DNA from: a virus
Length of the DNA stretch: 62,672 nucleotides
Strand: one strand, 5' to 3'
IMG/VR virus record: IMGVR_UViG_3300028590_000016
Location: 1 to 62,672 of that record
Made by a program: the position numbers and the translations under genes. The notes under the pieces are model-generated. The model saw nothing but the letters and a program-made list of their open reading frames with translations, was not told the origin of the DNA and ran no database searches. This document shows, piece by piece, positions 3,638-55,761 of the stretch. The first letter of the stretch is position 1, and every line of letters starts with the position of its first letter.

Positions 3638-6600
3638 TGGCGAATTCAGTCGGCTCCGTCCAAATTGATCTTGAGGCGAGGCTGGCTAAGTTTGAGTCGG
3701 ATATTGGCCGCGCCGCGCGCATCCTCGAAAGAGAAATGGCGCGTGGCGCGGCTCAGGCCGAGCGTGCGATGCAGCAGATGCAGCAGAAGGTCACGCGGGA
3801 GCTTGAGAAGATTCAGCAGGCAGGCGCACAGATCGGCCGCGCGTTCGTTGGCTGGTTCAGCGCGCAGGCTATTGCTGGATTCGCACAGGGGCTTGCAAGA
3901 GTAGCCGATAGCTACGCAAACATTCAGGCTAAGGTTCGGCTTGCTGCTGGTGAGCAAACGAACCTAGCCGAAGCGACGCAGAAGGTTTTCGCAGTCGCGC
4001 AGAACACGTTTAACTCGTTTGAATCGACGACGGCGCTTGTACAGCGTACCGCGCTAGCCCTGCGCAATGCAGGTAAGGACGCGTCGACAGCTTTCACTAC
4101 CGGCGTGCAGCTCGCCGAAGTCTTCAATAAATCGCTTGTCGTCTCCGGCGCGTCGGCCATAGAGGCCGCTTCATCCGCTATGCAGTTCTCGCAAGCGCTC
4201 GCGTCCGGAAAGTTCCAGGGCGATGAGTTCCGCTCCGTCATGGAGAACAATTCCCGATTCGCTCAACTGCTGGCTGACTCTCTTGGGGTTACCACGGCCA
4301 AGTTGCGCGAGATGTCGACCGCCGGGAAGCTCAACATTGAATCGATGCTTGGCGTTGTCCGCAATACGGAAAAGCTGGACGCCGAGTTCGCGAAGATGCC
4401 GGTGACGATTAGCCGTGCGACGACACAGCTTTCCAACGCGTGGACGAAGTTCATCGGTGAGACAGATCAGGCGGCAGGTTCATCGCGGGCAATCGCTGAG
4501 GCCATTCAACTGCTCGCCGGTCGGCTGCCAGCCCTAGTTGATTCCGTCCTGCGTCTTACCACGGTTTTCGTCACCTACTTCGCTGTCTTTCGAGTTGCGC
4601 CGGCACTATACGCTGCGAGCACCGCTGCATTAGCGGCTTACACCGCCGCACTGACATCTTCGTCAATCGCCGCTGAGCTTGGAATGACGGCGAACGCCAA
4701 GTTCTCTCTTTCCATGAACACGGCTGAGATTGCCGCAGCGTCGCTGACAGTCAAGCTTCAGGCTCTTTCGGTTCTATTGTTCTCGGGTTTCGTTGGTTGG
4801 GAAATCGGCAGCATTTTGCGCGAGCAGTTCGTGGAAGTTCGCGTCGCCGGTATCGCAATGGTGGAAGGCTTGCTGGTCGCATGGGAGCGCTTCAAGGAAG
4901 GCGCCAAGATTGCGGCAGCGACCATTCAAGCGGCTTTCGGGAATCTTGATGAGGTGCTTGGGCTTAGCTTGAAGTCGTTGGCCTTGGGCTGGGCGAAATT
5001 CTTTGACTTCGTTCCGGCTATCCCCGGTGGCGCGCAAATCGCAGAAGGCCTGCGCGGCATCGTCTCTGAGATGGGTCCAGCAATCAACACATCGGCTCTG
5101 CTGGCTGGTTCGGTCGCCAATATCCGACTTGAAACCGAGCTTGCCATCGGCGCCATTCGTGAAAGCACTGGCGCCCTTGCCGAGGCGGAGCTTGCGGGGG
5201 ACAAGGTTGCTACGGCGCATGCAAAAGTAGCGCAGAGCACGGCTGCTGCCGCGCAGCAGATGGATACGCTGACGGTCAAGGCACCAGAGCAAGCCAAGGC
5301 GGTGAATTCAGCCGAAAGCGCGCTCAACGGCTACAACGATGCGCTGGCTAGACTTGAGAATTTGGCCGATCGTTCGTCGAAGGCTCTTGGGCCGCTGGAA
5401 AAGGCCGAATCCGATCACGCGATGCGCGTGCGGGAAATTGATGCCGCGCTGCAGAAAGCGATCGACAAGTCGGAAGAATACTTTGCAGAGACGGCACGGC
5501 AGGTACCGCTAGCCGATCGAGTAGCGGCCAAACTGCGGATGGTGGCCGAGGCTAGAGCTAAGCATGCGGCGGCCATGGGCGTAGAGGATGACGCGAATAA
5601 AGAGCGCATCGCCTCCGCGCAAAAAGAAATCGACGTTCTTTCTCCGCTACTGCAGAAACTCAAGGATCGAACCGACAACATTGGCCTGAGCGATCGAGAC
5701 CTTGATATCGCAAATCAGGTCAGAGAATTGCGCCAAGAGTATTCTGAACTGACGGAAGCGGCGAAGGCTGCAAATCCGCCGCTTGAGGTCATGGAAGCGA
5801 CGCTGCGGAAACAGGCTGGTGCAACGTATGACGCCGAGAAGGCTGCCGAGTCTTGGCGCAATGCGTGGGAGAACGTAGTTGATGGCGTCTCGCGCGCGAT
5901 CGGTGATTTTGCTACAGGCCAGATTAGGACGTGGAAGGACTTCACCCGTTCGTTGGTGGATACGTTCAAGCGAGCAGTTGCGGACATCATTTCTGAGTGG
6001 GCGAAGACGGCGATTATGAAGTCGTTCGCTGGTGGTGGTGGAAGCATTTGGGGCGGCCTTATCTCTGCTGGCGCCGCGATGCTCGGTGGCAGCGGCAAGG
6101 GAACGGCTGGTGGCGAAACTGGCGGCTTCACGTACGGGCCACAGGCTTCTAGCAACCCATTCAGCGGCAACGGAATGCTACTGAACTACGCCACGAACTA
6201 TGCCGGCGGTGGTGGTTCCATGGGCAGCGGTTCGGTTCCAGGATTCGGTGGCAACGTCGGTTCTACGATGGCGTTCGGTGGCGCCTTGATGGGCGCGCAG
6301 TACGGCATGACGCGCGGTGATGGTGGCATGGGCACCTTGGGCAGCACTGCGGCTGGCGCCATTGCTGGCTATTGGGCTGGCACCGTGGCTGCTGGTGCGA
6401 TCCTTGGTGCGTCTGCTGGTGCTGCGGCGGGTGGCACTGCTGTGGCGGTGTCTGGTGCCGCTTCCGGCGCAATGGGCGCCGCAGCTGCGGTTCCTGTGAT
6501 CGGCTGGATCGCCCTTATCGCTCTGGTCGCCGACTACTTCAGCGATGGCAACGTGTTCGGCACGAAATGGCGTCCGTCCGAGCATCGTTCGGAACTGAGC

Positions 6601-8703
6601 TTCAGCGACGAGGGGGCAACGGCTACTTCGCAAATCGACGAATGGCGGAAACAGAGCCAGTGGAGCCAGGCGTGGGGCCGTGTCTTTACCGGTGGTGCGC
6701 TGCTGCCTTCGGATTGGGGTGACAAGGATCGTCGCACGCGCGATCTTGCGGTCGATCCCGAGGTGTTGGAAGCGATCAAGAAGATCCATACCGACCTTCA
6801 GAACACGTATGAGAAGGCTGCGCAGCAGTTGGGCATCGCGGTCATTCCGATGCTTGATGCGACGTTCGACACGATCACGACTTACACGGAAAAGGGGAAG
6901 GTCAAGACGACGAAGACGGTTGGGACGATCCTCGGGCAGATGTACGAGGAACCGCTGGATCAGTTCGTGAAGCGCATGCACGCGGAAGCGATCATCCAAT
7001 CTTTGGACTCGATCGTGAAGGGCGCATCGGCTGCTGCGGAGGCTTACCGCAAGAATGCTGACGACTTACTCGACGTCGCGGCGATGATGACGCAGGCGCA
7101 CCTCGATCAGAAGGAAGGCAACGTGTTGCTCGGTGCTGGCGACAGCATGGAGGACATCGTTGCTTGGGTCGAAAAGCTGCGCGTCGGCGAAGAAAAGCTG
7201 ACGGACACGTATTCGCGTCTGCAGCAGGCTTCACAGGCTTACTTCGGAATCTTGGAGCGCGCTAACGAAGCATTGACCGCGATCAAGACGCCGAACACGC
7301 CTTTGGCGCAGATGCGTACTGCCCTGGAACAGATCGACGAACAGTTGGCTGAAAACATCAAGGGGTTGAACGATGCGGCTATCGCGGCGGGTCTCACTGC
7401 GGCAAAGGAAGAAGACCTTGCGAGGATTCGGGAACTTGCGGCGGCGCAGATAGACAAAATTGCGAACGACTTCTTTGCTGGGATCGATCAGCAAATTGAA
7501 GCGATGAACACGGATCACACGCCGGCTGGCGATTTCGCTATGACGATGCGTGCGATTTCGCGGCAGATGTACGACAACATCGAGGCAGCGAACATGCTGG
7601 CTCGGGCGCAGGGTCGTACCGGGGCTAGCACGACGCAGTTGGCGCGCATCCACGAGCTTGCAGCCCGTCAGGCTGCGGCAGCGATTCGCCAGCTTGAAAC
7701 GATCGCGCAACAACAAGTGCGTAGTCTCTACGGCACCGCGTACACGCTTGCCGATGTTGATGCGGATATCGCGGAGTTGGAAGGCCGTGCGGGCGCAGCG
7801 GCGCAAGCGGTGCAGGACTTCGGTTCTGCGATGGGTGATGCGGCCTCGGCTGCGTCTGACGCCATCAATCTGTTGCTTGGTGACCTCAGCCCGCTGAACG
7901 ATCAGCAGAAGTTGCAGACCGCGTTGGGCGGACTGCAGGCTGGCACGGTGTCGCAGGAGCAAGTGCTTCAGATTGGCCGTCGTCTGTATGCGAGCACGGC
8001 GCAATACAACGCGTTGTTCTGGCAAGTCATGAACATGGGGTCGCGCGCTGCGAACGGTGGTGGCGGTTCCGCTGCTGGGCAGGCTGACCCGAATACAGCG
8101 AAGCCGCTGACGTCGGAAGAGCAGGAGCGGTTGGCGCAGCTCTATGAACGTCGCGATGTGCTCCGTGCGCAGGGCCGATTGGAAGAAGCGCGGCAGCTCG
8201 CAGACACTATCGCTTCGCTGGCTGCTGCGAAGGGTCTGACCTTCGAAGAAATCGCGAAAGAACTGAATTTCAACCTTGGCGATTTGGCGGCTGACCTCGG
8301 TCTTACGAACGATGGTTTGCTAGCATATCTGGCTGAGATTGACGTCAATGCGGATGCGGTCCCGGACTCGATCACCTCGAACACGGACAGGTTGCTGGCC
8401 CGTCTGGATCAGTATTTCGGCTCCGGCCAATGGACCGATACCGGCTCTGAATCGACTGGTGACGAGTCCGAAAAGCCAGGCGATATCTCGCCGAACAGTT
8501 CCAAGGAACAGCGCGAATCGCTGGAACCTGTCACGAAGGAAATCGAACTCGGCCGCAGAGCAAGCGCCGTTAACACAGACAGACAGGTGGATTCGACGGA
8601 TCGGACGACTGAGGCCATTGAAGGGCTGCGCGCTGATATCCGTCGACAAGACGCCGATAACCCACGCAGCACTCGATACATGGTTCTGAGGTACGAACGT
8701 TGA
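3637..8703 (+). CDS. Tail tape measure protein
   Basis: 1688 residues from a GTG start that overlaps the chaperone stop. Residues 1-300 form a tape-measure N-terminal domain, including an EFRSVMENNSRFAQLLA segment and conserved glycines. Coiled-coil stretches cover about 20-70, 530-740 and most of 1040-1500. Hydrophobic segments lie near 300-345 and 370-395, and a glycine/alanine-rich part (about 780-970) ends with a membrane-like segment GWIALIALVADYF. At the usual 1.5 angstrom per residue the tail would be roughly 250 nm long. It sets tail length and probably aids DNA passage. Confidence 0.92.
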   Translation: MANSVGSVQIDLEARLAKFESDIGRAARILEREMARGAAQAERAMQQMQQKVTRELEKIQQAGAQIGRAFVGWFSAQAIAGFAQGLARVADSYANIQAKVRLAAGEQTNLAEATQKVFAVAQNTFNSFESTTALVQRTALALRNAGKDASTAFTTGVQLAEVFNKSLVVSGASAIEAASSAMQFSQALASGKFQGDEFRSVMENNSRFAQLLADSLGVTTAKLREMSTAGKLNIESMLGVVRNTEKLDAEFAKMPVTISRATTQLSNAWTKFIGETDQAAGSSRAIAEAIQLLAGRLPALVDSVLRLTTVFVTYFAVFRVAPALYAASTAALAAYTAALTSSSIAAELGMTANAKFSLSMNTAEIAAASLTVKLQALSVLLFSGFVGWEIGSILREQFVEVRVAGIAMVEGLLVAWERFKEGAKIAAATIQAAFGNLDEVLGLSLKSLALGWAKFFDFVPAIPGGAQIAEGLRGIVSEMGPAINTSALLAGSVANIRLETELAIGAIRESTGALAEAELAGDKVATAHAKVAQSTAAAAQQMDTLTVKAPEQAKAVNSAESALNGYNDALARLENLADRSSKALGPLEKAESDHAMRVREIDAALQKAIDKSEEYFAETARQVPLADRVAAKLRMVAEARAKHAAAMGVEDDANKERIASAQKEIDVLSPLLQKLKDRTDNIGLSDRDLDIANQVRELRQEYSELTEAAKAANPPLEVMEATLRKQAGATYDAEKAAESWRNAWENVVDGVSRAIGDFATGQIRTWKDFTRSLVDTFKRAVADIISEWAKTAIMKSFAGGGGSIWGGLISAGAAMLGGSGKGTAGGETGGFTYGPQASSNPFSGNGMLLNYATNYAGGGGSMGSGSVPGFGGNVGSTMAFGGALMGAQYGMTRGDGGMGTLGSTAAGAIAGYWAGTVAAGAILGASAGAAAGGTAVAVSGAASGAMGAAAAVPVIGWIALIALVADYFSDGNVFGTKWRPSEHRSELSFSDEGATATSQIDEWRKQSQWSQAWGRVFTGGALLPSDWGDKDRRTRDLAVDPEVLEAIKKIHTDLQNTYEKAAQQLGIAVIPMLDATFDTITTYTEKGKVKTTKTVGTILGQMYEEPLDQFVKRMHAEAIIQSLDSIVKGASAAAEAYRKNADDLLDVAAMMTQAHLDQKEGNVLLGAGDSMEDIVAWVEKLRVGEEKLTDTYSRLQQASQAYFGILERANEALTAIKTPNTPLAQMRTALEQIDEQLAENIKGLNDAAIAAGLTAAKEEDLARIRELAAAQIDKIANDFFAGIDQQIEAMNTDHTPAGDFAMTMRAISRQMYDNIEAANMLARAQGRTGASTTQLARIHELAARQAAAAIRQLETIAQQQVRSLYGTAYTLADVDADIAELEGRAGAAAQAVQDFGSAMGDAASAASDAINLLLGDLSPLNDQQKLQTALGGLQAGTVSQEQVLQIGRRLYASTAQYNALFWQVMNMGSRAANGGGGSAAGQADPNTAKPLTSEEQERLAQLYERRDVLRAQGRLEEARQLADTIASLAAAKGLTFEEIAKELNFNLGDLAADLGLTNDGLLAYLAEIDVNADAVPDSITSNTDRLLARLDQYFGSGQWTDTGSESTGDESEKPGDISPNSSKEQRESLEPVTKEIELGRRASAVNTDRQVDSTDRTTEAIEGLRADIRRQDADNPRSTRYMVLRYER

Positions 8704-17862: not shown

Positions 17863-18110
17863 GGCAGCCACCGATCGGTCCAGTGTCCATCTGGCAGAAC
17901 CTTGGTGCGATTGATTGAGAGGCGAACGATTCCATCGGCTTCCGGAAACGCCTGCACGAGAAAATCTCGCGAGCGCCAGACGCCAAGATGCGTTTCGCGT
18001 GGCACCTTTTCAGGCGGCAGCGCTTCCAACCGATGCCCATACTTTAGGTTTTCGGCATTGAGCGCTTTCCGCATCTCGTTGACCTGACGGAAGTCCATGG
18101 GCTTCATCAT
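17859..18110 (-). CDS. Conserved small protein (DUF7694-like)
   Basis: 83 residues from ATG 18110 (ATGATGA overlap with the previous stop). The sequence KYGHRLEALPPEKVP, then WRSRDFLVQAF and RLSINRTKV follows a pattern seen in small phage and prophage proteins that I associate with DUF7694. Function unknown. Confidence 0.6.
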   Translation of the reverse strand: MMKPMDFRQVNEMRKALNAENLKYGHRLEALPPEKVPRETHLGVWRSRDFLVQAFPEADGIVRLSINRTKVLPDGHWTDRWLP

Positions 18111-19183
18111 GCAGCCTCGGTTGGATACTCGTTGTGCTCGCGGCCGTCGAGAAGGCGGCCGGACATTTTCTTGCCGACGCGGACCATCCAAGCGCCGCCA
18201 GACTCCTTCCAGCCCTCATCGACCATACCGAAGTGCTTGTCACCGGCGGCGAAGAATTTTCCAACAGCGTTGAATATCCGGTCCTCTCGGGAAGCCTTGA
18301 GCAATGGTCCGCCCGGCGCCTCGTTTGTAGCATCAGCGAAGTCGCCCCACTGTTTCCAGAAAAATGCGACTTTGTGTTCCGCGCACTGGTCACGAATAGA
18401 GCGCGCCCAATCCGGGTGGAACGGTCGTGCACCACGACCAGACTCGCCGCCGGCAACAACCCAATCGATGCGACGTAGCGGCAGTTCATTGCCCATCGCA
18501 TCCCATCGCCCGGTCTGGTTCACATCATTGAACCGCATATCGATCGCGCTCAGCAACGGCTCTGCGGAAACCCAGCGGATCACGGCCGGCGTACTCCGCA
18601 AGTAGCCGACCCGCTCGTCATAGCGTTTCTGGTCTTCGGCGCTGATGCCGACCCAGATGCCGGGCGGCGGGTTCTGCGGGCTGAACTTTAGGTTCGGCGG
18701 CGATACTTCATCCCCGCGCCGGTTCTTGTGGAAGATGCGCAGGCATTCCGACGAGGCGTACACTTGCTCCCAGAACTGCGAATCGTTCAAGAGTTCGTGC
18801 ATCCGCTTCGCACGCTTCGTCAGCACTTGGAACGTGTGCCCGCGCAGATGGTGCGCAGCGATCATCACGGCGAAAATCTCGACGATCCACCAGCGCTCGG
18901 CGTTTTCGTGGAAAAGATCGCCATGGGCGCAGACGAAGATGCGGCGCGGTGTCGCCCAGCGCAGAGGTTGTTCAAGCCACTGTTCATTGAAGCGGAGGGC
19001 GCCATTCCAGACTGGCCCAGCTTTGGTCTGAGTCGTCAGGCCAATACGTGAAGGGTGATTGCGGAGCCTCGATCCTGCAAGCTTCATTGCATAACAATTC
19101 GTGCAGCCCGGCGACTCAAGGCTGCAGCCCGTAATCACGTTCCAACTAGAATCCGTCCATTCGATTTTCGTTTTCTCGCCCAA
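18107..19183 (-). CDS. Gp37/Gp68-like (DUF5131) protein
   Basis: 358 residues from TTG 19183 (AGGCG upstream). The N-terminus KTKIEWTDSSWNVITGC followed by SPGCTNCYAMKLAG is the hallmark of the phage Gp37/Gp68 family, with the CxxCYA cysteines. Later blocks GIWVGISAEDQKRYDERV, WVSAEPLL, VVAGGESGRGARPFHPDW and FFWKQWG also match. The family resembles radical SAM enzymes in layout, but its reaction is not established. The gene is divergent from the small plus-strand gene at 19250. Confidence 0.85.
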   Translation of the reverse strand: MGEKTKIEWTDSSWNVITGCSLESPGCTNCYAMKLAGSRLRNHPSRIGLTTQTKAGPVWNGALRFNEQWLEQPLRWATPRRIFVCAHGDLFHENAERWWIVEIFAVMIAAHHLRGHTFQVLTKRAKRMHELLNDSQFWEQVYASSECLRIFHKNRRGDEVSPPNLKFSPQNPPPGIWVGISAEDQKRYDERVGYLRSTPAVIRWVSAEPLLSAIDMRFNDVNQTGRWDAMGNELPLRRIDWVVAGGESGRGARPFHPDWARSIRDQCAEHKVAFFWKQWGDFADATNEAPGGPLLKASREDRIFNAVGKFFAAGDKHFGMVDEGWKESGGAWMVRVGKKMSGRLLDGREHNEYPTEAA

Positions 19184-19245
19184 CGTCGTTCGCCTATGTC
19201 TTGGTTGGCAAGCCGTGATATCGTAGAGACACCTTACAACAGCGA

Positions 19246-19257
19246 GCGTATGTACGC
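19246..19257. promoter_or_regulatory. 12-bp palindrome over a start codon (candidate operator)
   Basis: GCGTA-TG-TACGC is a perfect inverted repeat that covers the ATG of the lone plus-strand gene, in the 66-base gap between divergent genes. A nearly identical palindrome (GCGTACGTACGC) overlaps a promoter at 52578-52589. Such a site could serve autoregulation by the small protein encoded here. Confidence 0.35.
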
Positions 19258-19438
19258 AATGGCTCCACCGAAGAAACCTGTAGCGCAGTGCCGAACAGCG
19301 AGTCATCCCTTCCAGATCCGCGCCAACGCCGTGGAACTTGAAGCATGGAAGGGTGCGGCTGGTGCGATCCCTACAAGCACATGGGCGCGTGACGTACTGA
19401 ACAAGGCGGCTAAGGCGAAGCGTCCGACGAAGGGCTAG
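19250..19438 (+). CDS. Small ribbon-helix-helix-like protein on the opposite strand
   Basis: 62 residues from ATG 19250 (ATG 19259 is an alternative). The C-terminal half, FQIRANAVELEAWKGAAG then STWARDVLNKAAKA, looks like the MobC/Arc-type proteins in which a strand is followed by two helices that bind DNA. It is the only plus-strand gene inside the 30-kb minus block and is divergent from the Gp37/Gp68-like gene. It ends inside the 3' end of the convergent minus gene. A regulator or antitoxin-like role is inference. Confidence 0.6.
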   Translation: MYAMAPPKKPVAQCRTASHPFQIRANAVELEAWKGAAGAIPTSTWARDVLNKAAKAKRPTKG

Positions 19439-19829
19439 GCGGGTCGTCTGGCAGCGGTGCATAGTGCGTGACTGCTGTCGGGTCCAAGTAGTTCTTGAAC
19501 CCGATTGACCAGAGACCCATGCGCTGCCCGTTGATCGTCTCGCCGACTGTCGTATCCCAGCAGGCGTAGTACATCTTTGGGAGCCAGCCCCCGGTACCGG
19601 GCCAGTACAACAGAACTGGTGTCCCGTCTTTCGGCGCGGTGCAAATCGGCTTCCATGGCGAAGCTCGGCGATTCCAAGCCAATATTGCAGCATCGGTTGT
19701 TTCCGATGCTGGCCCTTCAACCGAACAAAGAGCACAGGCTACTGTGTTCCAGTAGACTGACGGCGAATTGATGTGGAGATGCGCGGTGGTCCCGCACCAT
19801 GGGCAATTTTTCAGCTCAACCGTAGTCAC
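19410..19829 (-). CDS. Lar-like zinc ribbon fused to a DUF551-like domain, second copy
   Basis: 139 residues from GTG 19829, with AGGGAG nine bases upstream and a GTGA overlap. NCPWCGTTAHLHI, CALC and TTDAAILAWNRR give the Lar pattern; SPWKPICTAPKDGTPVLLYW and THYAPLPDDPP give the DUF551 part. It parallels the protein at 14498-14911, so the fusion is a repeated theme in this phage. Possible role in countering host restriction is a family inference. Confidence 0.7.
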   Translation of the reverse strand: MTTVELKNCPWCGTTAHLHINSPSVYWNTVACALCSVEGPASETTDAAILAWNRRASPWKPICTAPKDGTPVLLYWPGTGGWLPKMYYACWDTTVGETINGQRMGLWSIGFKNYLDPTAVTHYAPLPDDPPSPSSDASP

Positions 19830-21533: not shown

Positions 21534-22040
21534 TCATGGCGACCATTCCACAAGTTCAGTTTTGTACGACAGCATGAGCGGATGTAGCGGGTCGCCGGAC
21601 TTCGACAGACCGAAAATCTTGATCGGCTTGCCGCACTCGCGGAGCATGCGACGGACGACGGACAGCCGATCGTGCAGCCGCTTCGGAATCTTGTCGCGAC
21701 TCCCCCAGCACGGCACGACGATATCGGCCTCGGCCATGATGTCGCGCAGATGCTTGTCGTTGTCCGGTCCAATCGGGTCTGCAGCCGAGCCGAGTTCGTG
21801 CACGTCGGTCGCGCGGTACGCGTACGGGTTGCCGTAGATGACACTGCGCGCGCCCATGCGTCGACCGAACTCGCGCCACTTGCGATCCGTCTGGTCAGGT
21901 ACCGTCTTTTCGGCCTTGGACGGGTTGGCACCGATGAACGCGACAACGATACCTTCGTGCGCCAGAAGGCGTTCCAGAAAGTATCGGAACCGCCCGCACT
22001 CGCTGATGATGCATCGACCGCCGGTCTCGACGATGCTCAC
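21534..22040 (-). CDS. DUF1643 family protein
   Basis: 168 residues from GTG 22040 (GGAGG upstream, GTGA overlap). Family blocks are clear: FIGANPSKAEKTVPDQT, IYGNPYAYRATDVHELG, ADPIGPDNDKHL, IVVPCWGSRDKI and FGLSKSGDPLHPLML. DUF1643 proteins occur in phages and bacteria; the fold hints at a nucleotide-processing or glycosylase-like pocket, but the activity is not known. Confidence 0.85.
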   Translation of the reverse strand: MSIVETGGRCIISECGRFRYFLERLLAHEGIVVAFIGANPSKAEKTVPDQTDRKWREFGRRMGARSVIYGNPYAYRATDVHELGSAADPIGPDNDKHLRDIMAEADIVVPCWGSRDKIPKRLHDRLSVVRRMLRECGKPIKIFGLSKSGDPLHPLMLSYKTELVEWSP

Positions 22041-22525
22041 GCCCCACCTCCGTTCGCGCCCATGGCGCTCGATATTTCCCACAGGGTTCGCGCTACGCCG
22101 CCATTTCCTGCTGGCGAACGTTTTTCGCGAAGCTTCACGCTCGACTCAGCCCACGACTTGCGCGCCGGCATGTCGCGCACCTTGCGGAATCCTGCTGCGC
22201 GTAGCGACGCGCCTGACTCGTCGTACTGTGTGTAGGTGATGCAGCGCACGTAGCCCATTGCGCGAGCAGCACGCCACACCGCGCCGTACAGCATAGAGTT
22301 CGCGTTGCGTGTGCCATCGGTGCAAGTGCGGTTCACTTCCAGCGTTACGCCATCGTCGAGGGCGCGAGCGATCGGGCGGCCAGCTGTCGCGACGCCGATC
22401 AGAGTTGTGCCATCCATGACGCCAACGCCGAATTTCCAGCCGGTCACGCCCTTGTTGTGCCGGTGCGCCGCCAGCACGAACGCGCGGGCGCACCGGAGAG
22501 TGATGGGCACGACGCGCAGGGCCAT
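22037..22525 (-). CDS. XF1762-like protein (GNAT-type fold)
   Basis: 162 residues from ATG 22525 (TGATG overlap). The segments HRHNKGVTGWKFGVGVMDG, GVATAGRPIARALDDG, NANSMLYGAVWRAARAMGY and QYDESGASLRAAGF match the XF1762 family, which resembles N-acyltransferases. The substrate is unknown. The last 20 residues (SPAGNGGVARTLWEIS) are also typical of the family. Confidence 0.8.
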   Translation of the reverse strand: MALRVVPITLRCARAFVLAAHRHNKGVTGWKFGVGVMDGTTLIGVATAGRPIARALDDGVTLEVNRTCTDGTRNANSMLYGAVWRAARAMGYVRCITYTQYDESGASLRAAGFRKVRDMPARKSWAESSVKLREKRSPAGNGGVARTLWEISSAMGANGGGA

Positions 22526-22698
22526 CACGCACCGTCCTTTGCGTCGGCAGCGCGGCTGAAGGCTGTCGAAAGGAGAGCACTGCAACGCCGGCAGATTTCC
22601 GGATCGCCGCCGCCGGCCGACTGATAGTCGACTATGCCGCGATGGCCGAACTTGCGGCATAGCCACGCGCGGAGCTGTTGAATCCATGTCTCGCTCAC
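22525..22698 (-). CDS. Small cysteine-containing protein
   Basis: 57 residues from GTG 22698 (GTGA overlap). A basic amphipathic start (SETWIQQLRAWLCRKFGHRG) is followed by DPEICRRCSALL with a CxxC. It may bind zinc. Coupled at both ends, which supports its reality despite the small size. Confidence 0.6.
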   Translation of the reverse strand: MSETWIQQLRAWLCRKFGHRGIVDYQSAGGGDPEICRRCSALLSTAFSRAADAKDGA

Positions 22699-24110
22699 GG
22701 CTGCCCGTCCTTTGCGCCCATGTCGGGGCTGATGAAGTGGTGGCAACGGCCGCAGTACGTAACGCCGTCGTCAACGTAAGGGGCGTCGTCGAACTCGGCA
22801 TGTAGGTAGCCGCCGCGACCGTCATGCGCCGCCTTCGGGCAGTTCACGCCGTGGCGAATCGCCTCGTCGGCCTTTGCTGCGCCCATGGCGCGGTCGATGG
22901 CGTCACGCAGGGTGTCTCCGCTGTACGCGTGCCCGTCGTAGCTCAAGCGCCACTGAGCCGCGCGGTAGTTGGTCTGCTGTGCATACTCGATTTGGGTGTA
23001 CCGAACCAAGTGCAGCGCTTCTTCAGGCGGCAGCGGTTTCGCAACCATCGCTGCAATAGCGTCGATCCGCCCCGCATCCCTCGCGTCGGGATGGGCGTCC
23101 GGAGGGTGGCGCCAGAGGCGGACAACAACGCCTCTACTGCCGCCCGCTACCGTGACCTGATATTTGGTCGGCTCGCCGTCGTACAGGTACGTGCGACCGG
23201 AGGCCGGATATTCCGCGAGCCAGAAATCGCACGGCCGCTCAACCGCCGAGGGTTCCTCGGTAGTTGCGGGCGGGGCGAGGTAGAGCGCGCGCACCACGAA
23301 TCCTTCCGGCACAGTGAAGCGCGGCCCGATGACCACGTTCGTCTCGTTGTGAAGGTTCGTGTACGCCCAGGCGTAAGGCTTGTCGCCAACCGTCAAGCAT
23401 TCCTTGGCGGGTGCGATAGGAACAGGCGAGCCATCGTTCTGGCCGCACGTCTTGAGTTCCGCGACACCGGTCGTAGCGACATCGGCAGGGCGCCACGTAT
23501 GGCCGCAGGCGTGGCACAGGTGCGTGCGGTGCGGTGGGTTGGGCCAGCCCACCACGTCGCGCTCACCAAGGCCGTCGAGGCCGACCAAGCACGGCACCGC
23601 ATAGACTTCCTCGCCATCGATGTGCTGCACCCGGCACTGCGGGCAGAACAGCAGCATCGGCACTGGCTCGGGTTCTCCCTCCTGCACCTTGGGCGCGGCG
23701 GCGAGCATGGCGAACATCTTGGCTCGGTGCGCGCGCACTTCGCGCTCCTGCGATGCGGTCAGCCCTTCGTCCTCGCCCCACGTCAGCATCTGCGCTGCGA
23801 GTTCGAACGCGTCGCGCCACTCGGCCGGCAACGTGTAAGGAACGCTTACACGTTCGGATGGTTGCATGCCATGGTGTTTCAACCGGTCCCGAATAATTTC
23901 CGCTCCGGCGTAATCGGGATTCGCCTGCGCCCAAGCAATTTCCCCCTGAGTAACCGCGAAAGGACTCGGCTCGGCTGATGCGCGGGCGGCTTGCCATGCG
24001 GCATAGGTCGTGGACTCGCCGCGCTCAGCAGCTTCCAAGATTGTCTGTTGCTGCGGCGCTGGCAGCGTGCGCACGAACGCCTCAAACTCCATCCGGCTCT
24101 GCTCGTTCAT
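22695..24110 (-). CDS. Large mosaic phage protein with zinc ribbon
   Basis: 471 residues. The N-terminus (MNEQSRMEFEAFVRTLP) is a common phage module. A middle block, LLFCPQCRVQHID then HLCHACGHTWRPADVATTGV, forms a four-cysteine zinc ribbon widespread in phages. The C-terminal third has EYAQQTNYRAAQWRLSYDG and ends in a second cysteine pair (GVTYCGRCHHFISP). It looks like several mobile modules joined in one frame. Function unknown. Confidence 0.7.
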   Translation of the reverse strand: MNEQSRMEFEAFVRTLPAPQQQTILEAAERGESTTYAAWQAARASAEPSPFAVTQGEIAWAQANPDYAGAEIIRDRLKHHGMQPSERVSVPYTLPAEWRDAFELAAQMLTWGEDEGLTASQEREVRAHRAKMFAMLAAAPKVQEGEPEPVPMLLFCPQCRVQHIDGEEVYAVPCLVGLDGLGERDVVGWPNPPHRTHLCHACGHTWRPADVATTGVAELKTCGQNDGSPVPIAPAKECLTVGDKPYAWAYTNLHNETNVVIGPRFTVPEGFVVRALYLAPPATTEEPSAVERPCDFWLAEYPASGRTYLYDGEPTKYQVTVAGGSRGVVVRLWRHPPDAHPDARDAGRIDAIAAMVAKPLPPEEALHLVRYTQIEYAQQTNYRAAQWRLSYDGHAYSGDTLRDAIDRAMGAAKADEAIRHGVNCPKAAHDGRGGYLHAEFDDAPYVDDGVTYCGRCHHFISPDMGAKDGQP

Positions 24111-45047: not shown

Positions 45048-45931
45048 TGGCCTGCGATTGGATCAAGATGCGGACTGACCTCTATCGTGATCCGAAGGTA
45101 TGTCTGATCGCTGAAATTTTGGACTCCGGCGATGGGCAGCTTGCGCGTTACGTGAACCAAAACACAGGGTGTGACATGAGTGTAACGCGTAACGTAACGC
45201 GTAACGCGACCGTTGGTGCGCTCGTAACGGTATGGGGTGTTATGAGGTTGCGCGGAAAGCGCAACGGTGACGATCTTGTGTGCCAAATGGCGACGATTGA
45301 AGTGCTTGATGACATCGCCGACCTGCCTGGTTTCGGTTCCGCCATGGCCTCTGTAGGGTGGGTTGTTGAGACTGAAACGGGGGTAACTTTCCCGCGCTTT
45401 TTCGAGGACTACAACGTTGATCCCGCTGAAAAAACCCCATCTTCCGCTGCTGAGCGCCAGCGCCGATATCGGGACCGCCTGAAGCAAGCTTTGGCGGCGT
45501 CACAAGGTGGCGTAACGCGTGACGATTCAGTGGACTGCGTTAGTAACGTAACGCGTGACGTAACGTTACGCTCTAGAGAAGAGAAGAGAAGAGAAGAGAA
45601 AGAAGATAAAAAGACTTCCTCATCGGCTTCGCCGAATCGGCGCCAAAACCGGTTGGAAGACCCTCCTGGATTCGTCGAGTTCTGGTCTGCGTATCCACGC
45701 AGCAGCGGACGCAAGGATGCCGCGAAAGCTTGGGCGAAGCTCGCACCAGATGCGGCTATGCAGAAAATCATCATGGCCGCTGTGGCGAAGCAAACGCAGT
45801 CAGATGACTGGCGCAGCGATGGGGGCAAGTACATCCCGCATGCGTCGACTTGGATCAATGGCGAGCGCTGGAACGATGGCCTGTTCCGACAACAACCCCA
45901 CGAACTCCCCGAACACTTGCAGGGCATCTGA
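45047..45931 (+). CDS. Replication initiation/replisome organiser protein (lambda O/DnaT-like)
   Basis: 294 residues from ATG 45047. The N-terminal part (DWIKMRTDLYRDPKVCLIAE and AMASVGWVVETETGVTFPRF) is a winged-helix type found in phage replication proteins. The linker is charged (REEKRREEKEDKK), and the C-terminal part FVEFWSAYPRSSGRKDAAKA is the usual phage O/DnaT module. It should bind the origin and load the downstream helicase. The gene itself carries iteron-like repeats, as in lambda O. Confidence 0.8.
   Translation: MACDWIKMRTDLYRDPKVCLIAEILDSGDGQLARYVNQNTGCDMSVTRNVTRNATVGALVTVWGVMRLRGKRNGDDLVCQMATIEVLDDIADLPGFGSAMASVGWVVETETGVTFPRFFEDYNVDPAEKTPSSAAERQRRYRDRLKQALAASQGGVTRDDSVDCVSNVTRDVTLRSREEKRREEKEDKKTSSSASPNRRQNRLEDPPGFVEFWSAYPRSSGRKDAAKAWAKLAPDAAMQKIIMAAVAKQTQSDDWRSDGGKYIPHASTWINGERWNDGLFRQQPHELPEHLQGI
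45143..45571. repeat. Iteron-like repeats GTAACGCGT(A/G)ACG: candidate replication origin
   Basis: Direct copies of GTAACGCGTAACG lie at 45182-45194 and 45194-45206, copies of GTAACGCGTGACG at 45512-45524 and 45548-45560, an inverted core at 45143-45152 and a palindrome GTAACGTTAC at 45560-45569. A purine-rich tract of repeated GAGAA units follows at 45575-45610. They lie inside the replisome organiser gene. The layout (iterons, then an easily melted purine tract) is the same as in lambda ori, which lies within gene O. Confidence 0.65.
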
Positions 45932-48849
45932 TGCGCGCGACCGAGATAGCAAAGCTGCTGGCGAGACAGGCCGAGGATGTAGCGCGGAAACTTCTGCCGA
46001 ACGGGAAGCGCCACGGGCGGGAATGGAAAGTGGGCAGCGTCGGGGGCGAGGCTGGGGAATCTCTTGGCGTTTGCCTCAGTGGCGATCGTGCCGGAGCATG
46101 GGCTGATTTCAGTACTGGCGATACCGGCGACCTTATCGGGCTATGGATGGCTGTAGCGAATCTGGACTTGCGGGAGGCATGCGAGGAAGCGATTGCGTAT
46201 CTTGGCGTCGCTGAACATCGCGTCGAGAATCCGAAACCAGCCTACAAACGCCCGACGAAGGAGAACGTCAGCAAGCTCAGCGACGAGCACTATGCATGGC
46301 TGACCGAAGTACGATTGATCGCGCCGGCAACGATTGCGGCGTACAAGCTCGCGACGAAGGCCACCGGGCGCGGTGTCGCGCTGATGTTCCCATACCTGCG
46401 TGATGGCGAATTGCTCGCGGCGAAATATCGCGGAGCGCCTGAGAAAACCTTTTGGACCGACTCAGAGTGCGAGCCGTGCTTGTTCGGCTGGCAGGCTATC
46501 CCGGCAGCGCAGCGCGAATTGGTGCTCTGTGAGGGAGAGCTAGACGCACTGGCATGGCACACATTCGGTCATGCCGCGCTATCGGTTCCGTTCGGAGGCG
46601 GCGGTGGCAACAAGCAGCAGTGGGTGCCAAATGAGTTCGACAGGCTTGCGCGCTATGACGTGCTGTACCTGTCCATGGACATGGACAAGTCTGGACAGGA
46701 GGCGGTTGCTGAACTGGTCAGTCGTCTCGGCCGTGAGCGCTGCCGTATAGTCGAACTGCCACGCAAGGACGCGAACCAATGCCTGATCGATGGCTTCACC
46801 GTCGAGGACATGGCGGCAGCAAAGAAGCGCGCTCGCACGCTGGACCCCGCCGAACTTCGCAATGCTGGCGAGTTCGAGGATGCGGTGTGGGCCGAGTTCA
46901 ACCGCACTGACGAAGGCCTGAGACTCCCTTGGCGGAAAACACACGATTCGCTTTTGCTCAGGGCCGGCGAGACGTCTTTTTGGGCGGGTGTGAACGGGCA
47001 CGGGAAAGCGCTCAGTTTGGACACAAGAATCCCGACGCCCTCTGGCTGGTCGACGATGGGTGACTTGAAACCGGGGGATTGGGTTTTTGACGAAAACGGG
47101 ATGCCGTGCGAGGTCGTTGCGCAAACAGCGGTGATGCTAGAACGGCCGGTCTTCAAAATCACATTCTCTGACGGCTCGGAAATTGTGGCCGACGCTGAAC
47201 ACGAATGGCTTACTTTCACAGCAAAAGCCAGGCAAAGCTTTCGCAATGCCAAGATGAACAGCCGTCTCGAAGGGGGCGCCACAAAAAGATTTGGGAGCGA
47301 CCAAAGCCACAAGAGAACCAAGCCATCCATTGTCACGACAGCTCAAATCGCCAGCGGCGTATTCGTAACTGGCGGCTGCTGGGAAGGGCTTTCGGAGCAT
47401 AGCATTCAAGTTTCTGGCCCCCTTCAGTGCGAACTAGTCGAATTGCCAGTCGACCCTTACTTGCTTGGTGTTTGGCTTGGCGATGGGACGACAGCCAGTT
47501 CAGCGATAACCACCGCTGACACCGAGATAGTTCAGAGGTTCACAAGGGCTGGGCACATTGTTACGAAACTTTCATCTCCGTACGGATACGGAATCACGGG
47601 AGGCCACTTTGTCCGAGGACTAAAGACGGCGAGAGTCTTAGGCAACAAGCATATCCCTGCGATTTATTTGAGAGCCAGTTTCGAGCAGCGACTAGCGCTT
47701 CTGCAGGGGCTGATGGACACTGATGGACACGTCACTGCATACGGAAGATGCGAGTTCACAAACACAAACAAGCGACTTGCCGATGCAGTTCTTGAGCTTG
47801 TCCTGTCGCTCGGCATTCAGGCCAAGATGATCGGCGGACGGGCTATGCTGTATGGGAAGGATTGTGGCCCCAAGTACCGGATCACGTTCACGCCGGATTT
47901 GCCTGTCGCGACTCTACCTCGCAAAGCGGCACGGCTTCGCAAAGTAATTTCAGATCGAGTCAAGCACCGATTCATAGTTGGATGTCAGCCGGTAGAATCA
48001 GTGCCAGTCAAATGTATCCAAGTGAATTCTAAGAGCCATATGTACTTGGCTGGCGAAACAATGATCCCCACGCACAACAGCGCCGTGGTCAGCCACATCG
48101 TCGGATCATTGGCTTGTGATGGGGTGCTTTGTTGCGTCGCCTCGATGGAGTTTCGAACGTCGAAATGGCTCATGCGAATGGCTCGACAGATCGCTGCGCG
48201 CAGCGATCCAACTGAAGTGTACGTGCGGCATATCGTTCAATGTTTGGCTGAATCGCTTTGGACTTTTGACGTAGCAGGGCGCGCAAAGGCAGATAGAATT
48301 CTTGAGGTCTTTGAATACGCTCGTAGGCGATATGGGATCGAGCTTTTTGTTCTCGACAACCTCACGAAGTGCGGTTTCGCCGACGATGATTTTCCGGGGC
48401 AGAAAGCTTTCGTTGAGACGTTGACCGACTTCGCGCGGGATACACGGACACATGTAGCGGTGGTCGCTCATATGCGCAAAGGTGAATCAGAAGACAAGCC
48501 GTCAGGCAAGTTCGGTGTCAAGGGTTCGGGCGGCATCATCGACATGTGCGATACGCTCGTCGAGGTCTGGCGCAACAAGAAGCGCGAGGCGGCAATTCGT
48601 ATCGCGAAAGAGACTGGCAATCCAATTGATCCGGACTACGCTGATCAGGCAGACACGATGCTGTATGTCCGCAAGCAGCGCGAGACCGGCATTGAACCAG
48701 CGATCAAGCTTTGGTTCGATCCTGACTCGACGCAGTTCCTTGGGAAGGCCGATCACAGGGCGCTGCCGCTGTTGAATCGGACGTGCGTCCCGGTGCAGGA
48801 CGATGGCGGGGCGAATGGCGCTCACGGATATGAGGCAAACGTGCAATGA
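45931..48849 (+). CDS. Replicative primase-helicase with an in-frame class 3 intein
   Basis: 972 residues from ATG 45931 (TGATG overlap), or 615 after splicing. The N-terminal part lacks zinc-finger cysteines. A Toprim domain has the catalytic Glu in LCEGELDAL (E201) and the DxD-like MDMDKSG (250-255). The RecA-like helicase follows, with Walker A GVNGHGKS split by the intein between K359 and S717, and later ELFVLDNLTKCG and HVAVVAHMRKGE. It unwinds and primes at the fork. It is directly downstream of the organiser gene. Confidence 0.92.
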   Translation: MRATEIAKLLARQAEDVARKLLPNGKRHGREWKVGSVGGEAGESLGVCLSGDRAGAWADFSTGDTGDLIGLWMAVANLDLREACEEAIAYLGVAEHRVENPKPAYKRPTKENVSKLSDEHYAWLTEVRLIAPATIAAYKLATKATGRGVALMFPYLRDGELLAAKYRGAPEKTFWTDSECEPCLFGWQAIPAAQRELVLCEGELDALAWHTFGHAALSVPFGGGGGNKQQWVPNEFDRLARYDVLYLSMDMDKSGQEAVAELVSRLGRERCRIVELPRKDANQCLIDGFTVEDMAAAKKRARTLDPAELRNAGEFEDAVWAEFNRTDEGLRLPWRKTHDSLLLRAGETSFWAGVNGHGKALSLDTRIPTPSGWSTMGDLKPGDWVFDENGMPCEVVAQTAVMLERPVFKITFSDGSEIVADAEHEWLTFTAKARQSFRNAKMNSRLEGGATKRFGSDQSHKRTKPSIVTTAQIASGVFVTGGCWEGLSEHSIQVSGPLQCELVELPVDPYLLGVWLGDGTTASSAITTADTEIVQRFTRAGHIVTKLSSPYGYGITGGHFVRGLKTARVLGNKHIPAIYLRASFEQRLALLQGLMDTDGHVTAYGRCEFTNTNKRLADAVLELVLSLGIQAKMIGGRAMLYGKDCGPKYRITFTPDLPVATLPRKAARLRKVISDRVKHRFIVGCQPVESVPVKCIQVNSKSHMYLAGETMIPTHNSAVVSHIVGSLACDGVLCCVASMEFRTSKWLMRMARQIAARSDPTEVYVRHIVQCLAESLWTFDVAGRAKADRILEVFEYARRRYGIELFVLDNLTKCGFADDDFPGQKAFVETLTDFARDTRTHVAVVAHMRKGESEDKPSGKFGVKGSGGIIDMCDTLVEVWRNKKREAAIRIAKETGNPIDPDYADQADTMLYVRKQRETGIEPAIKLWFDPDSTQFLGKADHRALPLLNRTCVPVQDDGGANGAHGYEANVQ
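47008..48078 (+). other. Class 3 intein with LAGLIDADG homing endonuclease
   Basis: 357 residues, numbered here from the intein start. Residue 1 is Ala, not Cys or Ser. The class 3 set is present: Trp67 two residues after the block B His65 (AEHEWLTF), Cys336 in block F (PVKCIQVNS), Thr355 in the terminal PTHN. The +1 residue is Ser. Two LAGLIDADG blocks, LLGVWLGDG and LLQGLMDTDG, mark a homing endonuclease. It interrupts the Walker A motif after GHGK, so splicing is needed for helicase activity. Confidence 0.9.
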
Positions 48850-55297: not shown

Positions 55298-55386
55298 GGA
55301 AGGTTAAGCGGGAAGGTTCCCGCACTGGTTTGCTAAACCAAGTGCTCCGGCAGCGGAGTGTGGATCAAGACCACAGCCTTCCTCCA
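55298..55386 (+). tRNA. tRNA-Ser(GCU)
   Basis: Acceptor GGAAGGT pairs with GCCTTCC, discriminator T, CCA at 55384-55386. Anticodon loop TTTGCTAAA gives GCU; the variable arm is long, as in serine tRNAs. The T loop reads ATCAAGA, lacking the usual TTC start, which is atypical. Discriminator is U where serine tRNA usually has G. Confidence 0.85.
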
Positions 55387-55394
55387 AGTTGTAC

Positions 55395-55471
55395 GGAGGC
55401 GTAGCTTAGCGGTTTAAAGCATCGGCCTGTCGAGCCGACGACCATGGGTTCGAATCCCATCGTCTCCGCCA
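55395..55471 (+). tRNA. tRNA-Asp(GUC)
   Basis: Acceptor GGAGGCG pairs with CGTCTCC (one G-U), discriminator G, CCA at 55469-55471. Anticodon loop CTGTCGA gives GUC. D and T arms are normal (T loop TTCGAAT). The hammerhead element starts seven bases after it. Confidence 0.92.
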
Positions 55472-55477
55472 GTTGTT

Positions 55478-55537
55478 GTTAGCCTGATGAGGCCGTGAGG
55501 CCGAAACATGCGCGCAAGGAAGCGCCATGTAGCTAGC
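55478..55537 (+). ncRNA. Type I hammerhead ribozyme
   Basis: Stem I GTTAGC (55478-55483) with GCTAGC (55532-55537); CUGAUGA core 55484-55490; stem II GGCC/GGCC (55491-55494, 55499-55502) with a GUGA tetraloop; GAAA 55503-55506; stem III ACATG/CATGT (55506-55510, 55526-55530) plus GCGC/GCGC around C55511 and an AAGGAA loop. The cleavage triplet is GUA, so it would cut after A55531, leaving a 5'-OH on G55532. All invariant core bases are present. Confidence 0.88.
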
Positions 55538-55679
55538 TGGCGGCAGCGAATGCCGGCGGGTCTACATCTCAAGCGTGAGGTCGCAGGTTCAAATCCTGCC
55601 GTGGGTGAAAGCCCACGTAGCTCAGTGGTTAGAGCGCATGAAACGACTCGCCAAACCCTTGTCGCTGCTGTCCAGCTAG
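55533..55679 (+). ncRNA. Complementary flanks enclosing the permuted tRNA
   Basis: CTAGCTGG-CGGCAGCG (55533-55548) pairs with CGCTGCTG-T-CCAGCTAG (55663-55679): 16 pairs, one G-U, one bulged T. Inside, GGCGGGTC (55555-55562) pairs with GACTCGCC (55645-55652). These helices hold together the two outer segments that would be removed if the tRNA halves are joined. The outer helix starts one base after the hammerhead cut and shares bases 55533-55537 with hammerhead stem I, so the two structures exclude each other. Confidence 0.7.
55565..55640 (+). tRNA. Circularly permuted tRNA, probable anticodon CUC
   Basis: The 3' half (55565-55606) comes first: C31, loop ATCTCAA (anticodon CUC, U33 present), anticodon stem 3' side GCGTG, variable AGGTC, T arm GCAGG-TTCAAAT-CCTGC, acceptor CGTGGGT. 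A GAAA linker (55607-55610) leads to the 5' half (55611-55640): acceptor GCCCACG, TA, D arm GCTC-AGTGGTTA-GAGC, G26 and CATG. All seven acceptor pairs form (one G-U), and joining G30 to C31 gives a five-pair anticodon stem CATGC/GCGTG. No CCA is encoded. Confidence 0.8.
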
Positions 55680-55682
55680 AAC

Positions 55683-55761
55683 ATGCCCGCATAGCTCAGT
55701 CTGGTAGAGCAGCGTATTTGTAATTCGTTTGCCGGTGGTTCGAATCCACCCGGGCGTGCCA
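55683..55761 (+). tRNA. tRNA-Thr(UGU)
   Basis: Acceptor ATGCCCG pairs with CGGGCGT, discriminator G, CCA at 55759-55761. The anticodon loop TTTGTAA gives UGU; T arm GGTGG-TTCGAAT-CCACC is normal. Two oddities: four bases (CATA) instead of two link acceptor and D stem, and the anticodon stem has a U-U mismatch. Start could be two bases later if another pairing is used. Confidence 0.75.

What the first reader, a model, noticed from the sequence alone, without database searches (positions are those of the whole stretch)
55565..55640. A circularly permuted tRNA gene in a phage
A complete tRNA can be folded from this stretch only if its 3' half, which comes first, is joined to its 5' half, which comes second. 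Seven acceptor pairs, the D and T arms, and, after joining G55640 to C55565, a five-pair anticodon stem with U33 and anticodon CUC all form. The halves are linked by GAAA, which closes the acceptor stem as a tetraloop. Neither half has a partner in the normal order nearby. Permuted tRNA genes are known from some algae and archaea; I do not know of an established phage example.
Basis: partly seen in the sequence, partly recalled or inferred. Interest (0 to 1): 0.95.

Follow-up and report, generated by a model that had tools for sequence, protein, structure and literature searches.

The report
Phage Y RNA mimicking permuted tRNA
The stretch is not a scrambled tRNA gene that makes a working tRNA but a phage copy of a known bacterial RNA, the Y RNA (YrlA), whose far end copies a whole tRNA in swapped order, and just before it sits a self-cutting hammerhead ribozyme placed to trim its front end.

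Summary
But 55543-55671 matches Rfam YrlA, the bacterial Y RNA, above its cut-off (69.7 vs 69 bits). T arm - acceptor hairpin - D arm is the known YrlA order. Evidence against a decoding tRNA: no CCA, a GAAA tetraloop, no RNA ligase found in the record, a local hairpin outcompeting the anticodon arm, and a non-Glu body (C11-G24, seen in 0 of 104 Glu tRNAs). Two things go beyond the published description. (1) The anticodon arm is not a one-off: perfect arms across the permuted break occur in 57/142 bacterial and 12/42 phage Y RNAs, against 11 and 2 in shuffled halves; related phage units cluster with Ro60 genes (38/49 records vs 6/50 controls). (2) A hammerhead ribozyme lies directly 5', predicted cut 55531^55532, the Y RNA's 5' end; the same occurs in an unrelated phage and at phage tRNA-Tyr and tRNA-His 5' ends.

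The parts
55466..55543 (+). Type I hammerhead ribozyme: core CUGAUGAG 55484-55491, stem II GGCC-GUGA-GGCC, GAAAC 55503-55507, stem III ACAUG.../...CAUGU, cleavage triplet GUA, predicted cut 55531^55532. Inner stem I GUUAGC 55478-55483 / GCUAGC 55532-55537; outer stem I CCGCCAG/CUGGCGG overlaps the tRNA-Asp 3' end
   Evidence: Sequence; core pattern found once in the window, expected 0.01. Full descriptor 0 times in 20 shuffled windows. Fold consistent with the three stems, z=-2.9. Rfam Hammerhead_3 24.6 bits, E=0.016, below the gathering score
55532..55682 (+). Y RNA (YrlA type), inferred mature ends: 5' end from hammerhead cleavage, 3' end from RNase P processing of the following tRNA-Thr (A55683)
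   Evidence: Rfam RF02553 69.7 bits over 55543-55671; MFE -74.4 kcal/mol for 55533-55682, z=-5.97. Ends are inferred
55533..55549 (+). Outer (Ro60-type) stem, 5' strand; pairs with 55662-55679
   Evidence: MFE fold; outer stem in 42 phage relatives 6.52/7 pairs vs 4.50 with shuffled partners
55662..55679 (+). Outer stem, 3' strand; overlaps the conserved CUUGUCG element
55555..55562 (+). Inner stem 5' strand; pairs with 55645-55652; followed by the conserved CUACAUC (55562-55568)
   Evidence: inner stem 6.02/7 vs 5.08 shuffled in relatives
55645..55652 (+). Inner stem 3' strand
55565..55577 (+). 3' part of the permuted anticodon arm: C31, loop AUCUCAA (55566-55572), 39-43 GCGUG (55573-55577); its 5' side is also the conserved CUACAUC motif
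   Evidence: Sequence; perfect-arm test; competing local hairpin
55583..55599 (+). T arm GCAGG-UUCAAAU-CCUGC
55600..55617 (+). Acceptor hairpin CGUGGGU-GAAA-GCCCACG, no CCA
   Evidence: sequence
55620..55635 (+). D arm GCUC-AGUGGUUA-GAGC
55637..55640 (+). 5' part of the permuted anticodon arm, CAUG (27-30)
   Evidence: Sequence
55395..55471 (+). tRNA-Asp(GUC) just upstream; its CCGCCA end overlaps hammerhead stem I
   Evidence: ARAGORN, Rfam
55683..55761 (+). tRNA-Thr(UGU) just downstream, whose 5' processing would set the Y RNA 3' end
   Evidence: ARAGORN

Best explanation
A YrlA-type Y RNA sits inside a phage tRNA array. The hammerhead ribozyme just upstream cuts the array transcript at 55531^55532, and the freed 5' strand re-pairs with CCAGCUAG at the 3' side. 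RNase P cutting at tRNA-Thr gives the 3' end, yielding a roughly 151-nt RNA with fully paired ends. Its long stem is the Ro60-binding module. Because no Ro60 is found in this record, it would use a host Ro60, or act alone. Its distal half mimics a tRNA in permuted order, including a relict anticodon arm. By analogy with YrlA it would be modified by tRNA enzymes, and would tether PNPase or act as a tRNA decoy. It is not a precursor of a decoding tRNA. Shown here: family membership by covariance model, conserved stems, permuted cloverleaf, hammerhead motif and its recurrence. Inferred: cleavage, ends, Ro60 binding, function.
For: Rfam YrlA above gathering over the full model length. Outer and inner stems recur with changed sequence in 42 phage Y RNAs. 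Fold z=-5.97 with exactly the Y RNA plan. The conserved motifs CGAAUGC, CUACAUC and CUUGUCG are shared with bacterial Y RNAs. Related phage units co-occur with TROVE/Ro60 genes in 38 of 49 records, vs 6 of 50 records with ordinary tandem tRNAs. The hammerhead lies directly 5' here and directly 5' of a class Y RNA in L234, a phage locus with no detectable protein similarity to the window. Hammerhead cuts also fall exactly at tRNA-Tyr 5' ends (L252, L718, L722) and at G-1 of tRNA-His (L646). Literature: YrlA has D, T and acceptor arms plus a basal Rsr/Ro60 stem, and tethers PNPase (PMC8394870).
Against: The score is barely over the gathering threshold. There is no TROVE gene or DxSGSM ORF in the record, so a Ro60 partner is only assumed. 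Rfam scores the hammerhead below its own threshold. Phages related by their primase lack the locus, so there is no direct ortholog to compare.
Confidence: 0.88

Rival explanations
1. A true circularly permuted tRNA-Glu(CUC) gene: the termini are joined at G55640/C55565 and the acceptor loop is opened, giving a decoding tRNA as in red algae and some archaea.
For: The joined sequence is a perfect cloverleaf called tRNA-Glu by ARAGORN. Perfect anticodon arms across the break are enriched in phage and bacterial Y RNAs. Some relatives encode CCA in the acceptor loop (11/100 class T, 26/142 bacterial). Some relatives' records encode RtcB (8/49).
Against: No CCA, and a GAAA tetraloop. RtcB and RNA_ligase not found in the record. 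Body C11-G24 occurs in 0 of 104 Glu tRNAs and A32 in 2 of 104. The start of the 3' half relative to CUACAU varies between units, so there is no fixed cut site. In bacterial Y RNAs the anticodons have drifted: 14 of 57 carry A34 other than ACG, vs 0 of 143 ordinary tRNAs. A local hairpin is favoured over the arm.
Confidence: 0.04
2. A phage Y RNA acting as a decoy for host tRNA-cleaving defence (anticodon nucleases), with the anticodon arm retained as bait. This is a functional version of the best explanation, so its probability overlaps with it.
For: Competitive inhibition of the anticodon nuclease by the YrlA tRNA-like domain has been proposed for Salmonella, where YrlA is not itself cut (PMC7790460). 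The RNA sits in a phage tRNA array. The anticodon arm is retained in many relatives.
Against: No defence target is known, and the arm is not the predicted fold here.
Confidence: 0.3
3. A decayed permuted tRNA-like remnant without function.
For: The locus is not conserved in primase-related phages. No Ro60 in the record.
Against: Acceptor, T, D, inner and 17-bp outer stems are all intact, z=-5.97, and a complete hammerhead is joined to it. Decay would be expected to break long helices.
Confidence: 0.05

Closest known systems
YrlA / bacterial Y RNA (Rfam RF02553; Salmonella YrlA, PDB 6CU1)
   Same: Basal stem with conserved CGAAUGC ... CUUGUCG, CUAC junction, then T arm, acceptor hairpin and D arm in permuted order
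   Different: Carries a possible complete anticodon arm; sits in a phage tRNA array without a Ro60 gene in the record; has a hammerhead ribozyme at its 5' end
Circularly permuted tRNA genes of red algae, green algae and archaea
   Same: 3' half precedes 5' half; the joined sequence is a cloverleaf
   Different: The flanks form a Y RNA stem, not a bulge-helix-bulge; no CCA or processing spacer; no ligase found in the record; anticodon does not match the body
Hammerhead ribozymes of prophages (PMC3088659)
   Same: Hammerhead core in phage DNA
   Different: Placed so that the cut makes the 5' end of a Y RNA, and elsewhere of tRNAs, instead of flanking protein genes
Ro-linked permuted units of named phages (Streptomyces BRock and Satis, Xanthomonas Olaya, Caulobacter CcrColossus)
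   Same: Permuted tRNA-like unit with leader-trailer stem
   Different: They lie just 5' of a Ro gene and mostly have UUACUUC-type leaders; the window has the bacterial CUACAUC type

Membership tests
YrlA / bacterial Y RNA | Score above the curated covariance-model cut-off | tested here: met
   69.7 bits vs 69, whole model matched
YrlA / bacterial Y RNA | 5'-3' paired basal stem with conserved Ro60-binding elements | tested here: met
   17-bp and 8-bp helices; motif and helix shared with 42 phage Y RNAs
YrlA / bacterial Y RNA | tRNA-like module of T arm, acceptor hairpin, D arm in that order | tested here: met
YrlA / bacterial Y RNA | Usual association, not a feature of the RNA itself: Ro60/Rsr (TROVE) gene nearby | tested here: inconclusive
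   No TROVE match in the record; the record may be a fragment and a host Ro60 could serve
YrlA / bacterial Y RNA | Binds Ro60 and accumulates as an RNA | not testable with these tools
   Needs an experiment
Circularly permuted tRNA gene | Reversed halves that give a cloverleaf when joined | tested here: met
   ARAGORN and RNAfold on the joined sequence
Circularly permuted tRNA gene | Splice motif and ligase to join the halves | tested here: inconclusive
   No fixed junction motif; no RtcB or RNA_ligase in the record; the Rnl1 search rang nowhere, so it is uninformative; a host ligase is possible
Circularly permuted tRNA gene | Acceptor end fit for aminoacylation (CCA, processing spacer) | tested here: not met
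   GAAA tetraloop, no CCA; CCA could be added only after an unexplained cut
Circularly permuted tRNA gene | Body fits the anticodon | tested here: not met
   C11-G24 in 0 of 104 Glu tRNAs, A32 in 2 of 104
Hammerhead ribozyme type I | CUGAUGA ... GAAA core, three stems, NUH cleavage site | tested here: met
Hammerhead ribozyme type I | Score above Rfam cut-off | tested here: not met
   Best Rfam hit Hammerhead_3 at 24.6 bits, cut-off 48.5; the type III model does not fit a type I order
Hammerhead ribozyme type I | Self-cleavage | not testable with these tools
   Needs in vitro transcription

The most novel reading that the evidence does not exclude
The Y RNA family is at root a family of permuted tRNAs, and in Ro60-encoding phages some units with authentic anticodons (1 of 33 with A34 other than ACG) and encoded CCA are still cut and joined into working tRNAs on a Ro60 scaffold. 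The window's RNA would be a late, decoy-like descendant whose 5' end is made by a ribozyme.
Probability: 0.07. Interest if true: 0.92.

Novelty: new variant of a known kind. Interest (0 to 1): 0.5.

Why it matters
It turns an apparent one-off oddity into a testable statement about Y RNAs. The tRNA mimic is often a whole tRNA opened in the anticodon stem, whereas the held literature describes only D, T and acceptor arms (PMC8394870). This bears on where Y RNAs came from, on their link to the RtcB repair operon, and on the idea that they are decoys for anticodon nucleases. Separately, hammerhead ribozymes placed at the exact 5' ends of phage tRNAs and Y RNAs suggest a natural job for phage hammerheads: maturing structured RNAs without RNase P.

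Tried and rejected
Group I, group II or other self-splicing flanks for the permuted halves: Rfam found none in 20 loci holding units. Twister-sister hit at 55549-55634: 18 bits, E=0.9, below cut-off. Direct orthologs: no DNA match among phages or plasmids, and primase relatives lack any tRNA array. Divergent Ro60 in the window: no DxSGSM motif in an ORF of useful length, no TROVE. RNA ligases: none found; the Rnl1 profile rang nowhere, so one search is uninformative. I first thought the anticodon loop was a coincidence of the conserved CUACAUC motif. The shuffled-halves test made me withdraw that at family level, though for the window it remains a minority fold. A further hammerhead-plus-Y scan returned mostly chance matches; only L234 survived.

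Full report
Acceptor strands 55600-55606 and 55611-55617 pair around a GAAA tetraloop, and T and D arms follow the tRNA plan. Joining G55640 to C55565 makes a five-pair anticodon stem with loop AUCUCAA. ARAGORN calls the joined sequence tRNA-Glu(ctc), and its minimum-energy fold is the cloverleaf. The permuted pattern does not occur in shuffled windows, and no normal-order partner lies nearby.

What it is. In an Rfam scan the stretch 55543-55671 is YrlA, the bacterial Y RNA, over its full model length at 69.7 bits (cut-off 69, E 6e-14). A 17-bp outer stem (55533-55549 with 55662-55679), an internal loop, and an 8-bp inner stem (55555-55562 with 55645-55652) lead into T arm, acceptor hairpin and D arm (-74.4 kcal/mol, z -5.97, no shuffle as good). 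In 42 phage Y RNAs found by the motifs CGAAUGC...CUACAU and their variants, the outer stem has 6.52 of 7 pairs (4.50 with partners shuffled between units, never above 4.98) and the inner stem 6.02 (5.08 shuffled, never above 5.45). Class Y units of four other phage loci give significant but lower YrlA scores (37.6-57.7 bits). YrlA is known to carry D, T and acceptor arms on a basal stem that holds Rsr/Ro60 and to tether PNPase (PMC8394870). The permuted order is therefore a known property of this family, not a new kind of tRNA gene.

Relatives. A scan of IMG/VR for permuted T-loop-to-D-arm order, with a complementarity filter, gave 224 candidate units in 157 loci. Class Y has CUACAUC leaders and CUUGUCG trailers, like the window. 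Class T has UUACUUC leaders and full 7-nt anticodon loops: 33 of 87 have all five anticodon-stem pairs across the break vs 9.4 in shuffles. TROVE (Ro60) is encoded in 38 of 49 records holding such units, against 6 of 50 records with ordinary tandem tRNAs, one of which is also in the first set. RtcB is in 8 of 49. Four named phages have unannotated units just 5' of their Ro gene: Streptomyces phages BRock and Satis, Xanthomonas phage Olaya, and Caulobacter phage CcrColossus; none was found around the Ro gene of Gordonia phage Neville. One Olaya unit has the same loop, AUCUCAA, on a Glu-like body.

Is the anticodon arm real? At family level yes: perfect arms (5/5 pairs, U33, purine 37) occur in 57 of 142 bacterial Y RNAs (shuffled 11.2, max 19) and 12 of 42 phage Y RNAs (shuffled 1.9, max 6), the window being one of the 12. 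It does not look like a decoding arm. In bacterial Y RNAs 14 of 57 anticodons start with A other than ACG, against 0 of 143 ordinary tRNAs from the same loci; class T units are cleaner (1 of 33). Encoded CCA is the exception (26 of 142 bacterial, 11 of 100 class T). In the window the body is not Glu-like: C11-G24 is found in 0 of 104 Glu tRNAs and A32 in 2 of 104. In the full-length RNA a local hairpin, AUCUCA-AGCG-UGAGGU, displaces the arm (pair probabilities 0.75-0.99; forcing the arm costs about 5.5 kcal/mol; these energies ignore tertiary contacts). The start of the 3' half relative to CUACAU varies among units, so no fixed splice site exists in this class. The record has no RtcB or RNA_ligase match.

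Hammerhead. Between tRNA-Asp and the Y RNA lies a complete type I hammerhead (core 55484-55507, expected 0.01 in the window; descriptor absent from 20 shuffled windows). Its predicted cut, GUA^G at 55531^55532, makes the first nucleotide of the Y RNA. The strand after the cut (CUAGCUGG) can then pair with CCAGCUAG at 55672-55679, and three nucleotides further the 3' side is bounded by tRNA-Thr at 55683. An unrelated phage locus (L234, no protein similar to the window by tblastn) has a hammerhead directly 5' of its class Y RNA. Hammerhead cuts coincide with the 5' ends of tRNA-Tyr in L252, L718 and L722 and with G-1 of tRNA-His in L646. The large hammerhead survey of 2011 reports hammerheads flanking genes in prophages (PMC3088659); in the passages I searched I found no mention of tRNA or Y RNA 5' ends. 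Cleavage itself is inferred.

Mechanism. Shown: family membership, helices, motif conservation, hammerhead motif and its recurrence. Inferred: cleavage by the ribozyme gives a 5'-OH end, RNase P at tRNA-Thr gives the 3' end, the RNA binds a host Ro60 (none in this record), and its tRNA-like half acts as an effector or decoy. The decoy idea has been proposed for Salmonella YrlA (PMC7790460). The alternative, a spliced decoding tRNA-Glu, I rate at 4%.

Limits. The key Y RNA papers of 2014, 2018 and 2020 were not held (for the 2014 paper), so whether anticodon arms in Y RNAs have been described there is unknown to me.

Noticed in passing
L252 around 6877-6930 (+), L718 (+) cut at 8442, L722 (+) cut at 6673, L646 (-) cut at 1244 counted on the reverse strand: Hammerhead ribozymes whose predicted cut falls exactly at the mature 5' end of phage tRNA-Tyr (three) and at G-1 of tRNA-His (one); they could replace RNase P there.
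   Followed up: partly
L029:3273-3424 and 5134-5329: Rfam matches tRNAs with long inserts that themselves look like a second tRNA (T arm, CCA) nested in the anticodon region of the outer tRNA.
   Followed up: no
L031:1418-1490 and L402:15103-15183: Short tmRNA matches (73-81 nt spanning the whole 374-position model): a tmRNA tRNA-like domain without the tag part, in phages.
   Followed up: no
window 55298-55386: A tRNA-Ser(GCU)-like gene with CCA missed by ARAGORN; its T loop reads AUCAAGA instead of UUCRA.
   Followed up: no
window 45850-48849 +: DNA primase/helicase ORF of 999 aa with a LAGLIDADG domain in its middle, probably an intein.
   Followed up: no
L039, L073, L104, L293, L313: A third group of permuted units with leader UUUUAGG[stem]CUACAGCA and trailer [stem]CCUGUU, several in tandem; no TROVE found in the one record searched (L104).
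   Followed up: partly
L104:7545-8034 and L029:9181-9694: GOLLD RNAs lie in the same contigs as permuted units and large tRNA arrays.
   Followed up: no
window 22037-22825 - and 18107-19735 -: Mom-like DNA modification protein and a DUF5131 protein in the phage.
   Followed up: no
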